Assembly: GCF_004365575.1 (NCBI RefSeq)
Contig: NZ_SOBG01000004.1
Location: 124,001-188,000, forward strand
Reading direction: 5' to 3'
Length of the DNA: 64,000 bases
From: Hypnocyclicus thermotrophus
GTDB taxonomy: Bacteria; Fusobacteriota; Fusobacteriia; Fusobacteriales; Fusobacteriaceae
The position numbers and the translations under genes are program-made. The notes under the pieces are model-generated. The model was not told the DNA's origin. It was given only the letters and a program-made list of their open reading frames with translations, and did not search any database. Positions 7,689-39,981 of this stretch are shown here, piece after piece. Positions within the stretch are counted from its first letter, which is position 1. Every line of letters starts with the position of its first letter.

Positions 7689-7722
7689 AAAAAATAACGC
7701 TAATATTAGCGTTATTTTTTTA
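7689..7722. terminator. Bidirectional terminator between convergent genes
   Basis: AATAACGCTAA and TTAGCGTTATT form a perfect stem flanked by A-tract and T-tract, serving the J-domain gene (+) and the Xaa-Pro peptidase gene (-), whose stop codon lies inside it. Confidence 0.9.
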
Positions 7723-11321: not shown

Positions 11322-12992
11322 TAATAATTTTATTTTAAAGGTAGTTCCTTCTCCTTCTTGACTTCTTATATCTATAATTCCAGAATAAAGTTCTGTTATC
11401 TCTTTAACAATTGATAATCCTAATCCTGTTCCTGCTTTGTTTGTTGTTCTTGCTTTATCTATTCTATAAAATCTATCAAATATATTTTTAATCTCACCTT
11501 TTGGTATACCAATCCCATTATCACTTACATATATATTTATATAATTTTGTTCTTCTTCTACTCTAGCCCTTATTATTGGATTCTCTTTATCATTATATAT
11601 AATTGCATTTTCAATAAGATTTTTTAATAAAACTTTTATTTTCTCTCTATCTATATTTAATATTGGTTCTTTTCCACGAAGTTTAAGCTCGTATTTAAAA
11701 TCTACATTTTTCTTTTCTATTATATTTCCTAAAATTTCTAATATATCTTTAAATAAATTATCTATATTAGTAGGATATTTATTTAATACATTACTTGCTT
11801 CTATTTTTTGAATATTTAAAAAATCTTGTATAATATTTTCTAACTTTTCTATGTTATTTTCTGCAATATTTAAAAAATTATTTTTTATGATTTCATCATT
11901 TTCATCTCGAAGTGCTATAAGATAACCTTTTATATTTGTAAGTGGTGTTTTAAGCTCATGACTTATATTAGAAATAAACCTTTTTTCTATTTCTTTTATT
12001 TCTTTGCTTTGAGTTATATCTCTTGCAGATAAAATGTAAAGTTTTTCATTTTTTAAATATCTTCCTTTTATAAAATAATATTTTTTATAATCTGTCAAAA
12101 ATATTTCTTTGCTTAATCTTTTTTTATTCTTATAGAGTTGATTTAATACTTCAATTATATCTAAATTTTCTATTTTTTCATAATACTTTAATGTATTTAA
12201 ATTATTAAAAAAACTGTATTTAAACTCTCTATTATAGGCCAATATATTTTTCTCTTCATCAAACATTATAACTCCTATATCAATAAGAGATATAAGCTTA
12301 TCTAATTTCACTTTTTCTTTTTTTAGTTCTTCAATATTTTTTAAATTTTTTTTCTGCCATTCTTTTATTACTTTCCAAAATTCATTAAGCTCTATATCTT
12401 CTTTTAAATACATTGATTTAGGAATATCGCCACTTTCAATTACTTCTCTTATCTCTTTTATTTTATTAATATAATATTTTTTTAATATATAATTATATAC
12501 AAATATTAAAAATATATTTAATAATAAATATAAAAATACTTTTTGAAAAATTTGTTTTTGTAATGGAACAAAAATAATATTATATGGTACTGCTGCTCGT
12601 ATTATTATTTCATTAGAATATAATATCGAATAGTAAATTAATGTTTTATTAAGTGTTTTACTTTTTCTTATACTAAATCCTTGTTCATTGTTTATCGCTT
12701 CTTGTACTTCTTGTCTATATTTATGAGATTCTTTGGTATTTGAATCTGTATCAAATAATACTTCTCCATTTGTTTTTATTATTGTTACTCTATTTTTAGT
12801 AAAAATCCTTATATTTTCTAAATCTTTTACTCCATTTATATCAAAATATTTTGATATACTCCATGCTGTATTCTCTAAATCTTTTTTTACAATATTAATA
12901 GTCTCTTTTTTAAAACTACTGTAATCTTTGTATAAAAAAAGTCCTTGAAAAATAAATAGTAAAATAAATATTATTAATTCTCTTCGTCTAAT
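11316..12992 (-). CDS. phoR: PhoR-like phosphate sensor histidine kinase, probable ATT start
   Basis: 558 aa if read from ATT at 12992. The reading frame is open from inside phoB and gives RRRELIIFILLFIFQG (TM1, about 5-22), an extracytoplasmic domain, TM2 (about 152-172), a HAMP-like linker, a PAS-like segment and the kinase core: phospho-acceptor H345 in SHELKTPL, N box NLIENAIIYN, G1 DNGIGIP, F box and G2 GTGLGLSI. No ATG, GTG or TTG is in frame before residue 194 (ATG at 12413), which would give a soluble kinase lacking both helices. ATT at 12992 is 10 nt after AGGAG, overlaps phoB by 19 nt and yields a proper positively charged N-terminus. Function from position after phoB and pst genes. 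Confidence 0.82.
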   Translation of the reverse strand: MRRRELIIFILLFIFQGLFLYKDYSSFKKETINIVKKDLENTAWSISKYFDINGVKDLENIRIFTKNRVTIIKTNGEVLFDTDSNTKESHKYRQEVQEAINNEQGFSIRKSKTLNKTLIYYSILYSNEIIIRAAVPYNIIFVPLQKQIFQKVFLYLLLNIFLIFVYNYILKKYYINKIKEIREVIESGDIPKSMYLKEDIELNEFWKVIKEWQKKNLKNIEELKKEKVKLDKLISLIDIGVIMFDEEKNILAYNREFKYSFFNNLNTLKYYEKIENLDIIEVLNQLYKNKKRLSKEIFLTDYKKYYFIKGRYLKNEKLYILSARDITQSKEIKEIEKRFISNISHELKTPLTNIKGYLIALRDENDEIIKNNFLNIAENNIEKLENIIQDFLNIQKIEASNVLNKYPTNIDNLFKDILEILGNIIEKKNVDFKYELKLRGKEPILNIDREKIKVLLKNLIENAIIYNDKENPIIRARVEEEQNYINIYVSDNGIGIPKGEIKNIFDRFYRIDKARTTNKAGTGLGLSIVKEITELYSGIIDIRSQEGEGTTFKIKLLK

Positions 12993-38222: not shown

Positions 38223-38254
38223 AAAAACTGTTGAAATAATTTTCAACAGTTTTT
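38223..38254 (+). terminator. Terminator of infC-rpmI-rplT
   Basis: AAAAACTGTTGAAA (38223-38236) and TTTCAACAGTTTTT (38241-38254) with a T-tract. Confidence 0.92.
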
Positions 38255-38264
38255 TTATTTTTTA

Positions 38265-38293
38265 TTGCATATTATTTATAATTTTGTTATAAT
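38265..38293 (+). promoter_or_regulatory. Promoter of the small-ORF unit before the FAD gene
   Basis: -35 TTGCAT (38265-38270), 17-nt spacer, -10 TATAAT (38288-38293). The transcript would start near 38301 and run into the 29-codon ORF. Confidence 0.75.
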
Positions 38294-38328
38294 ATTTTTT
38301 GGTGTGAAAAATAATAATAGGTGATGTT

Positions 38329-38418
38329 ATGAATATTTTTATTTTTTTTAAAAAAAATAATGTTTTTCAAAAAAAAATATCACAACAACTATATACAAAA
38401 TTATATAGATTAATATAA
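38329..38418 (+). CDS. 29-codon leader-like small ORF
   Basis: ATG at 38329 preceded by TAGGTGATGTT; product MNIFIFFKKNNVFQKKISQQ then LYTKLYRLI, stop TAA at 38416-38418. It is rich in F, K, I, Y and Q with a hydrophobic N-terminus and basic rest. It sits between a good promoter and a strong terminator whose 5' arm begins within the stop codon, so a ribosome at the stop would mask that arm. No homologue is recognised. It may be a leader peptide, a small protein, or chance coding in an A/T-rich leader. Confidence 0.5.
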   Translation: MNIFIFFKKNNVFQKKISQQLYTKLYRLI

Positions 38419-38458
38419 CCTGAGGTATAGCTATAGCTATATCTCAGGTTTTTTATTT
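38417..38458 (+). terminator. Terminator/attenuator before the FAD protein gene
   Basis: AACCTGAG (38417-38424) pairs with CTCAGGTT (38443-38450); the inside TATAGCTATAGCTATA is itself self-complementary, lengthening the stem. TTTTATTT follows. The Shine-Dalgarno of the next gene is only a few bases on, so this terminator lies in that gene's leader. Confidence 0.88.
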
Positions 38459-38472
38459 AAGGAGGAGATTTC

Positions 38473-39861
38473 ATGAATTACGATGTTATTATCATTGGTG
38501 GGGGACCTGCAGGAATATTTACAGCTTACGAACTAGTAAAAGAAAAAAAAGATTTAAGTATTTTAATTATTGAAAAAGGAAAAAATATTTACAAAAGAAA
38601 ATGTCCAAAACATTATAACGGTGGAACATGTGTATACTGTAGCCCTTGTTCTATAACTACTGGATGGGCTGGAGCTGGAGCTTATTCTGATGGAAAACTT
38701 TCATTATCTCATGAAGTTGGTGGAAAGTTACCTGAATATATTGGAGTAGAAAAAACTCAAGAACTTATAAAATATGTAGATAATATTTATTTAAAATTTA
38801 ACGCTTCAAAAGATATACATGGAGAAGTTGAAAATAAAGCTATGAAAAAAATAAGAAAAAAGTCTATTAAAGCTAATTTAAAACTTGTACATTGCCCTGT
38901 AAGGCATCTTGGTACTGAAAAAGCTCAAGAACTATATGCTAAATTATATGAACATCTAATCGATAATAATGTAACTGTAAAATTTAATACTATGGTTGAA
39001 GATCTTATTATTGATAATAATAATGTAATTGGTATAAAAACAAAAGAAGAAAATATTTATGGAAAATATACAGTTGCTACTGTCGGTAGAGAGGGTTCAA
39101 ACTGGTTAATGGATATTTGTAAATCTCATAATATAAATACAAAACCTGGAACTGTTGATATTGGTGTAAGAGTTGAATGTAGAAATGAAATCATGAAAGA
39201 AATAAATGAAAATTTTTACGAAGCAAAAATGATACACTATACTAAAACTTTTGATGATAAAGTAAGAACTTTCTGCTCAAATCCTGGGGGATTTGTTTCT
39301 TCTGAATATTATGATGATAAATTAGCTGTAGTCAATGGTCATAGTTATAAAGAGCTTAAAAGTAATAATACTAATTTTGCTTTATTAGTCTCAAAGAATT
39401 TTACAGAGCCATTTAAATCGCCTATAGAATATGGTAAACATATTGCAAAACTAGCTAATATGCTTACTGAAAATAAAATTCTTGTTCAAAGATTTGGAGA
39501 TCTTATACGAGGTAGAAGAACTTATGAACATAGATTATATCGAAATAATATTATTCCTACACTAAAAGATGCTATACCCGGGGATCTTAGTTTAGTATTG
39601 CCTCATAGAATATTAGTAGATCTTATTGAAATGATATATGCACTTGACAAAGTAACCCCTGGTATTGCAAGTGATGAAACATTACTTTATGGTGTAGAAG
39701 TAAAATTTTATTCAAATATTGTAAAAGTAAAAGAAAATTTTGAAAGTATTTCTATAAATAATCTATATTTAGGCGGAGATGGAGCTGGTATTACACGAGG
39801 TCTTATGCAAGCTTCTGTAAATGGAATTGTTTTAGCTAGAAATATTTTAAAAAATTTTTAA
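38473..39861 (+). CDS. FAD-dependent dehydrogenase (COG2509-like)
   Basis: 462 aa. Rossmann FAD motif IIIGGGPAGIFTAYEL (about 5-20), a second FAD motif with NNLYLGGDGAGITRGLMQA at the C-terminus (about 430-450), and a cysteine-rich segment KRKCPKHYNGGTCVYCSPC (about 52-70). That fits the uncharacterised COG2509 dehydrogenases (relatives of geranylgeranyl reductase-type flavoproteins). The cysteines could bind metal or take part in redox; substrate unknown. Strong AAGGAGGAG Shine-Dalgarno. Expression probably depends on passing the terminator just upstream. Confidence 0.82.
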   Translation: MNYDVIIIGGGPAGIFTAYELVKEKKDLSILIIEKGKNIYKRKCPKHYNGGTCVYCSPCSITTGWAGAGAYSDGKLSLSHEVGGKLPEYIGVEKTQELIKYVDNIYLKFNASKDIHGEVENKAMKKIRKKSIKANLKLVHCPVRHLGTEKAQELYAKLYEHLIDNNVTVKFNTMVEDLIIDNNNVIGIKTKEENIYGKYTVATVGREGSNWLMDICKSHNINTKPGTVDIGVRVECRNEIMKEINENFYEAKMIHYTKTFDDKVRTFCSNPGGFVSSEYYDDKLAVVNGHSYKELKSNNTNFALLVSKNFTEPFKSPIEYGKHIAKLANMLTENKILVQRFGDLIRGRRTYEHRLYRNNIIPTLKDAIPGDLSLVLPHRILVDLIEMIYALDKVTPGIASDETLLYGVEVKFYSNIVKVKENFESISINNLYLGGDGAGITRGLMQASVNGIVLARNILKNF

Positions 39862-39864
39862 TCA

Positions 39865-39967
39865 AAAAAAAGAGTCTAAATAGTAATGCACTCCAAAAGT
39901 AGACACAATATAAAACATTTGTATCTTCATTTTGGGGTGCATTTTCAGTTTTTTAGTCTCTTTTTTT
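39865..39967. mobile_element. IS-end relic (MITE-like) nested in a terminator hairpin
   Basis: TGCACTCCAAAA (39887-39898) and TTTTGGGGTGCA (39930-39941) are terminal inverted repeats, 11 of 12 matching, bounding 55 bp with no ORF. TGCACnCCAAAAGTnGACA resembles IS3/IS150-group ends. Outside, AAAAAAAGAGTCTAAA (39865-39880) pairs with TTTAGTCTCTTTTTTT (39952-39967) with one mismatch and looks like the bidirectional terminator of the convergent FAD and pgm genes. No clear target duplication. Confidence 0.55.
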
Positions 39968-39981
39968 ATTTATAGTAAATA

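What the first reader, a model, noticed from the sequence alone, without database searches (positions are those of the whole stretch)
38265..38472. Promoter, 29-codon ORF and overlapping terminator ahead of an FAD protein: candidate translational attenuator
A complete mini-unit lies before the COG2509-like gene: TTGCAT-17-TATAAT, a Shine-Dalgarno, a 29-codon ORF and a strong intrinsic terminator whose first arm begins inside the ORF's TAA (38416-38418). A ribosome waiting at the stop would cover the 5' arm and let transcription continue into the FAD gene, while free ribosomes or none would allow termination. This is the logic of leader-peptide control, but the peptide is not rich in one amino acid and matches no leader I know.
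Basis: partly seen in the sequence, partly recalled or inferred. Interest (0 to 1): 0.65.

Follow-up and report, generated by a model that had tools for sequence, protein, structure and literature searches.

The report
Ribosome-coupled transcription attenuator before flavoprotein gene
In a Fusobacteria relative, a 29-codon mini-gene ends inside a transcription stop signal just ahead of a flavoprotein gene, and the same layout precedes nucleobase-salvage genes, which suggests a switch that opens when a translating ribosome runs close behind the RNA polymerase.

Summary
In detail: an extended -10 promoter, a Shine-Dalgarno, a 29-codon ORF (38329-38418) and a 15-bp terminator (38417-38450) starting inside the ORF's TAA, then 22 nt to the COG2509-type FAD gene. 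The stop/terminator overlap alone is ordinary: 42 of 194 gene-end terminators here have it. The whole unit is not. The only held sister species keeps every part: 29 codons, no indel, and no substitution from terminator to SD. The peptide itself is barely constrained (dN/dS about 0.8, versus 0.07 for the FAD gene). A scan of half the genome found 22 terminators directly ahead of genes. Five have a short SD-preceded ORF ending in them, where shuffles give 0.25. One (metK) is a SAM riboswitch. The other four precede the FAD gene, hpt-purA, uracil permease uraA and an MFS transporter. The hpt leader aligns end to end with the FAD leader. The uraA leader is kept in the sister species. A sister genus has an hpt leader ORF under codon-level selection. 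I favour pyrBI-like, ribosome-coupled transcription attenuation: default termination, readthrough when a ribosome trails RNA polymerase closely. The signal is unknown; nucleotide supply is a guess. No RNA data were available.

The parts
38265..38293 (+). promoter: TTGCAT, 17-nt spacer, extended -10 TGTTATAAT (38285-38293)
   Evidence: sequence; extended -10 unchanged in sister species G001 (TTGCTT...TGTTATAAT)
38319..38324 (+). Shine-Dalgarno AGGTGA of the leader ORF
   Evidence: TAGGTGAT kept in G001
38329..38418 (+). 29-codon leader ORF MNIFIFFKKNNVFQKKISQQLYTKLYRLI, stop TAA 38416-38418
   Evidence: 29 codons also in G001 with 69% peptide identity; dN 0.219, dS 0.264; no indel in 90 nt
38389..38408 (+). 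weak AU hairpin CUAUAUA/UAUAUAG at the ORF's end; CUAUAU can instead pair with GUAUAG 38425-38430 in the terminator 5' arm (candidate pause hairpin or weak antiterminator)
   Evidence: folding; alternative pairing -5.8 kcal/mol here, -2.7 in G001; weak
38417..38458 (+). intrinsic terminator (stem 38417-38450, U-tract 38451-38458), 5' arm beginning in the stop codon
   Evidence: 0 substitutions and one 1-nt indel from terminator to SD in G001
38460..38465 (+). Shine-Dalgarno AGGAGG of the FAD gene
38473..39861 (+). controlled gene: 462-aa FAD protein of the COG2509 type (PF21688 C-terminal domain; relative of PDB 3nlc, VP0956)
   Evidence: found in 52 of 61 family genomes
38223..38254 (+). terminator of the upstream rplT gene, separating it from the unit (boundary, not part of the switch)
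   Evidence: a hairpin of unrelated sequence at the same place in G001

Best explanation
The 38265-38472 segment is a ribosome-coupled transcription attenuator of the pyrBI kind controlling the FAD gene. Shown: promoter, translatable short ORF and terminator are present and kept as a set in a sister species, and transcription from the leader promoter can reach the FAD gene only through the terminator. Inferred: RNA polymerase normally reaches the terminator ahead of the first ribosome, because the stem starts only 88 nt after the start codon, and transcription stops. When RNA polymerase is slowed in the leader, or translation of the leader is quick, the first ribosome runs to the stop codon, covers the base of the 5' arm, prevents hairpin closure and lets transcription enter the FAD gene. 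The peptide is a by-product; the act of translation matters. It is one of at least four such units (FAD gene, hpt-purA, uraA, an MFS transporter) in the half of the genome examined. The signal is not known; nucleotide supply, as in pyrBI, is the leading guess because two of the four units sit on nucleobase-salvage genes.
For: Whole unit conserved in G001. No substitution in 53 aligned nt from terminator to SD where intergenic DNA shows 153 in 1549 (P about 0.004), while the adjacent rplT terminator was replaced. Leader ORFs of FAD and uraA: 42 substitutions, no indel, no stop; neutral chance of no stop 0.15 and 0.21, of no indel 0.01-0.1. dN/dS about 0.8 and 1.0 for these leaders against 0.07-0.08 for their genes, so the frame is kept but the peptide is not. 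Four non-riboswitch units among 22 leader terminators, shuffles 0.245, Poisson P about 1e-4. FAD and hpt leaders align end to end at score 120; shuffles 50 +/- 8.5, next best of 252 real upstream regions 87. uraA leader: 44 codons, stop in the terminator loop, in both species. Sister-genus hpt leader ORF under codon-level selection, dN 0.14, dS 0.92, stop in the loop. In most genera where uraA has a terminator, the stop of a ~125-codon upstream gene lies inside its stem. In E. coli a stop 5 bp before a terminator cuts termination from about 90% to under 10%, and terminators in the first 100 bp of an ORF stay active unless pausing couples the ribosome, as in pyrBI (PMC4824070).
Against: No RNA, ribosome-profiling or reporter data. 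Only two species carry the FAD unit; the 96 other phylum genomes searched lack the hairpin and relatives' FAD genes lack a comparable leader terminator. Stop/terminator overlap is common at ordinary gene ends. U8 and A8-9 runs that might pause RNA polymerase are not conserved in G001, and no pause site is demonstrated. The last third of the ORF is conserved at the nucleotide level (1 difference in 30 nt), so an RNA-structure role not involving translation is possible. The class rests on small numbers from half of one genome. Li et al. worked in E. coli; coupling in Fusobacteriota is not established.
Confidence: 0.55

Rival explanations
1. Stand-alone small gene: promoter, 29-aa small protein (or small RNA) and its own terminator, with the FAD gene expressed by constant leakage through the terminator.
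For: Stop codons overlapping terminator stems are ordinary here, 42 of 194; the ORF is kept open in both species.
Against: The peptide is nearly unconstrained (dN/dS about 0.8), unlike a functional protein; the terminator lies 22 nt from the FAD start with the SD directly after the U-tract; three further unrelated genes carry the same layout.
Confidence: 0.2
2. Transcription attenuator in which leader RNA structure, a protein or an undescribed ligand controls the terminator, and the ORF is incidental or secondary.
For: The end of the ORF and the terminator are conserved at nucleotide level; CUAUAU can pair with the terminator 5' arm; a SAM riboswitch in the same genome shows that a chance ORF can end at a leader terminator.
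Against: No Rfam family matches convincingly even at relaxed threshold; the candidate antiterminator is weak (-5.8 and -2.7 kcal/mol against -22 for the terminator); SD, start, frame and stop are all kept.
Confidence: 0.17
3. Classical leader-peptide attenuation: the ribosome stalls at a particular codon or because of the nascent peptide (trp/his type, TnaC type or drug-sensing type) and favours an antiterminator.
For: Short ORF with SD before a terminator; the last nine residues LYTKxYRLI differ at one position between species.
Against: Peptides differ freely elsewhere; no regulatory codon run is shared between FAD, hpt, uraA and MFS leaders; no stable antiterminator; downstream genes are not amino-acid biosynthesis or antibiotic-resistance genes.
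Confidence: 0.07
4. Small-RNA antitermination as proposed for FoxJ in Fusobacterium nucleatum, where a C-rich sRNA pairs with a guanine stretch in an intra-operonic terminator.
For: Mechanism proposed in this phylum (PMC11005410).
Against: The FAD terminator has no run of three or more G, the feature named for FoxJ targets.
Confidence: 0.01

Closest known systems
Escherichia coli pyrBI (pyrL) attenuator
   Same: Short leader ORF reaching the terminator, no required antiterminator, readthrough when the ribosome is close behind RNA polymerase; the uraA leader here is likewise 135 bp (44 codons plus stop) with its stop in the terminator loop.
   Different: Different phylum and downstream gene; in the FAD unit the ORF ends at the stem's first bases rather than within it; UTP-sensitive pausing not shown; leader only 29 codons.
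Ribosome repression of terminators placed just after stop codons (Li et al., PMC4824070)
   Same: Same geometry of stop codon and terminator; the physical effect was measured.
   Different: Artificial reporter in E. coli, long upstream gene, no natural regulatory signal.
Amino-acid biosynthetic leader-peptide attenuators (trp, his, phe)
   Same: Promoter, short leader ORF, terminator, then gene.
   Different: No regulatory codon run, no stable antiterminator, target is not an amino-acid biosynthetic gene.
FoxJ-controlled intra-operonic terminators of Fusobacterium nucleatum (PMC11005410)
   Same: Conditional terminators in Fusobacteriota.
   Different: Control by sRNA at guanine stretches, which this terminator lacks.

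Membership tests
pyrBI-type ribosome-coupled attenuator | translatable leader ORF overlapping the terminator | tested here: met
   stop codon shares bases with the stem in both species; for uraA and sister-genus hpt the ORF runs through the 5' arm into the loop
pyrBI-type ribosome-coupled attenuator | frame kept, peptide sequence not important | tested here: met
   no stops or indels, dN/dS about 0.8 (FAD) and 1.0 (uraA); the sister-genus hpt leader is an exception with dN/dS 0.16
pyrBI-type ribosome-coupled attenuator | nucleotide-sensitive RNA polymerase pause site in the leader | tested here: inconclusive
   U-rich tract in the uraA leader, but homopolymer runs in the FAD leader are not conserved; pausing itself not testable
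pyrBI-type ribosome-coupled attenuator | readthrough depends on leader translation | not testable with these tools
   needs reporter fusions
amino-acid leader-peptide attenuator | run of regulatory codons | tested here: not met
   leader sequences: no shared codon run
amino-acid leader-peptide attenuator | mutually exclusive antiterminator of comparable strength | tested here: not met
   best alternative -5.8 kcal/mol, -2.7 in G001, against -22 for the terminator
known riboswitch or cis-regulatory RNA in Rfam 15 | covariance-model match | tested here: not met
   none at gathering score and only chance-level hits at relaxed threshold; one search finds SAM and AdoCbl-II riboswitches elsewhere in this genome, so the test works here
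FoxJ-type sRNA-controlled terminator | guanine stretch in the terminator | tested here: not met
   terminator sequence has no GGG

The most novel reading that the evidence does not exclude
Fusobacteriaceae use a dispersed set of translation-coupled attenuators, each with a short, largely sequence-free leader ORF ending in a terminator, to tie nucleobase salvage (hpt-purA, uraA) and the uncharacterised COG2509 flavoprotein to RNA polymerase speed, in effect a nucleotide-supply regulon without a regulatory protein. That would give a first physiological lead for COG2509.
Probability: 0.22. Interest if true: 0.72.

Novelty: new variant of a known kind. Interest (0 to 1): 0.5.

Why it matters
Ribosome-coupled attenuation that senses RNA polymerase speed is known in detail from very few examples, chiefly enterobacterial pyrBI. 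A small set of such units in Fusobacteriota, with frames kept and peptides free to drift, would show the principle in a distant phylum, explain short ORFs that look meaningless by peptide conservation, and link an uncharacterised flavoprotein family to nucleobase-salvage genes.

Tried and rejected
Stop/terminator overlap as sufficient evidence: rejected, 42 of 194 ordinary gene ends show it. Peptide homology search in the family: only the sister species matches convincingly; other hits are chance-level in AT-rich DNA. Hairpin pattern in 98 phylum genomes: only the two species of this genus. Blastn hits of the leader in relatives: mostly low-complexity AT matches. FAD orthologues in other genera: no comparable leader terminator in the 28 loci examined. 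metK hit: rejected as a SAM riboswitch. AACCT...AGGTT pattern hits on C9 of G000 and C36 of G001: not units of this kind. Antiterminator hypothesis: only weak pairing. Homopolymer slippage or pause runs: not conserved. Second-best upstream alignments (L125, L131): no ORF-terminator unit. uraA in g3 and g6, and hpt in most other genera: no leader terminator found.

Full report
What is there. The finding's anatomy is exact. An extended -10 promoter (TGTTATAAT, 38285-38293) with a weak -35 (TTGCAT, 38265-38270) is followed by SD AGGTGA, a 29-codon ORF at 38329-38418 and a perfect 15-bp terminator at 38417-38450 with U-tract 38451-38458. The FAD gene's SD (38460-38465) and ATG (38473) follow at once. 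A separate terminator (38223-38254) insulates the unit from rplT. By inspection, the 22 nt between the terminator stem and the FAD start leave no room for a promoter that would bypass the terminator, so transcription from the leader promoter must read through it. The FAD protein has the PF21688 C-terminal domain and matches PDB 3nlc, uncharacterised VP0956.

Is it more than chance? A terminator stem that begins in a stop codon is common in this AT-rich genome: 42 of 194 gene-end terminators. What is rare is a short SD-preceded ORF that ends in a terminator standing directly before a gene. In 1.12 Mb of sampled stretches (about half the genome, with small overlaps) there are 22 leader terminators with no gene end just upstream; five have such an ORF, against 0.245 +/- 0.50 in dinucleotide shuffles. 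One, before metK, is a SAM riboswitch and is discounted. The remaining four precede the FAD gene, hpt-purA, an MFS transporter and a uracil-permease-like gene; Poisson P is about 1e-4. The hpt leader aligns end to end with the FAD leader at score 120, against shuffles of 50 +/- 8.5 and a next-best real upstream region of 87 out of 252. The two may be duplicates or a shared design.

Conservation. Only one other genome of the genus is held (G001). It keeps promoter, SD, 29 codons, stop/terminator overlap and FAD SD. From terminator to SD there are no substitutions in 53 aligned nt, while surrounding intergenic DNA has 153 in 1549 and the rplT terminator has been replaced by an unrelated hairpin. 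The ORF itself has changed at 17 of 90 nt, faster than the intergenic average, without indels or stops. dN is 0.22 and dS 0.26, against 0.04 and 0.53 for the FAD gene. The uraA leader behaves the same way: 44 codons in both species, stop in the terminator loop, 25 changes, no indel, dN/dS about 1. Neutral simulations give 0.15 and 0.21 for avoiding stops, and the indel rate gives 0.01-0.1 for avoiding indels across both. The frame is being kept while the peptide is not. In a sister genus the hpt leader ORF, ending in the terminator loop, does show codon-level selection over its first 24 codons (dN 0.14, dS 0.92), independent evidence that leaders of this layout are translated.

Wider pattern. 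Before uraA in several other genera the leader ORF is replaced by the end of a ~125-codon gene whose stop lies inside the uraA terminator's 5' arm (genera labelled g2, g5, g9, g12, g14 and part of g13). An ORF ending within the uraA terminator therefore recurs although the ORF's identity changes. Others (g3, g6) have no such terminator. The FAD unit is confined to this genus: FAD orthologues elsewhere show no comparable leader terminator and the hairpin is absent from 96 other phylum genomes.

How it probably works. In E. coli, ribosomes at a stop codon a few bases before an intrinsic terminator cut termination from about 90% to under 10%, and uncoupling translation restores it. Terminators within the first 100 bp of a coding region stay active because the ribosome has not caught up, unless pausing couples it, as in pyrBI with its 135-bp leader gene (PMC4824070). 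Translation across pyrL preventing its terminator is likewise described in PMC5021804. The FAD stem begins 88 nt after the start codon, so the expected default is termination. Slowing of RNA polymerase, or rapid leader translation, would let the ribosome reach the TAA and block hairpin closure. This needs no special peptide, which fits the drift of the sequence. What is shown is the anatomy, its conservation and the recurrence; the switching and its signal are inferred. Nucleotide supply is the leading guess because hpt-purA and uraA share the design, but the homopolymer runs in this leader are not conserved and no pause is demonstrated.

Alternatives. A stand-alone small gene is disfavoured by the free peptide and the immediate FAD SD. 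A structure-, protein- or ligand-controlled attenuator cannot be excluded, since the ORF's last third is conserved at nucleotide level and can pair weakly with the terminator arm, but no Rfam family matches. Codon- or peptide-specific stalling lacks a shared codon run or strong antiterminator. FoxJ-type sRNA control, proposed in this phylum (PMC11005410), needs a guanine stretch that this terminator lacks.

Verdict. A real, conserved attenuator-like unit, probably a pyrBI-like one and part of a small set. Seven searches of the held open-access library returned no description of such leaders in Fusobacteria; subscription papers were not searchable. Confidence is moderate because there are two species, no RNA data and a small sample.

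Noticed in passing
L122:18541-18768 (G000:C1), also L004:1510-1708: Second unit: extended -10 promoter, SD AGGTGG, 24-codon ORF MKILYYSTSNYLSIKKSNILTINI, terminator starting in the TAA, then hpt-purA; aligns end to end with the FAD unit.
   Followed up: yes
L189, minus strand, terminator 5' end at 7702; L196 in G001: 44-codon leader ORF ending in the terminator loop before a uracil-permease gene, with consensus promoter TTGACA...TATAAT; same length in the sister species.
   Followed up: yes
L140, minus strand, terminator 5' end at 11369: 32-codon ORF ending inside a terminator before an MFS transporter; the transporter gene was not found in G001.
   Followed up: partly
L088 and L089 (sister genus g6, minus strand), upstream of hpt: 37- and 43-codon leader ORFs with shared motif LFSCT(S)NSTGLC, an internal CTGTAC/GTACAG hairpin and the stop in the terminator loop; codon-level selection suggests the peptide or its RNA matters there.
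   Followed up: partly
L199, L201, L222, L228, L242 and others: In many Fusobacteriaceae a ~125-codon gene ends inside the 5' arm of the terminator preceding uraA, with only 33-64 nt to the uraA start; several of these terminators contain GGGG, the kind of site named for FoxJ.
   Followed up: partly
window 39878-39980: Between FAD and the convergent phosphomutase gene, a ~80-nt hairpin (TGCACTCCAAAAGTAGACA...TTTTGGGGTGCA) sits within the loop of the shared terminator; a plain short terminator stands there in G001. Looks like an IS3-type end remnant or a MITE; single copy in the genome.
   Followed up: partly
L122:11469-11543: AdoCbl-II (cobalamin) riboswitch in the same genome.
   Followed up: no
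L119 and L121: Conserved structured leader with a terminator ahead of a gene that looks like rplJ (probably an L10 leader).
   Followed up: no
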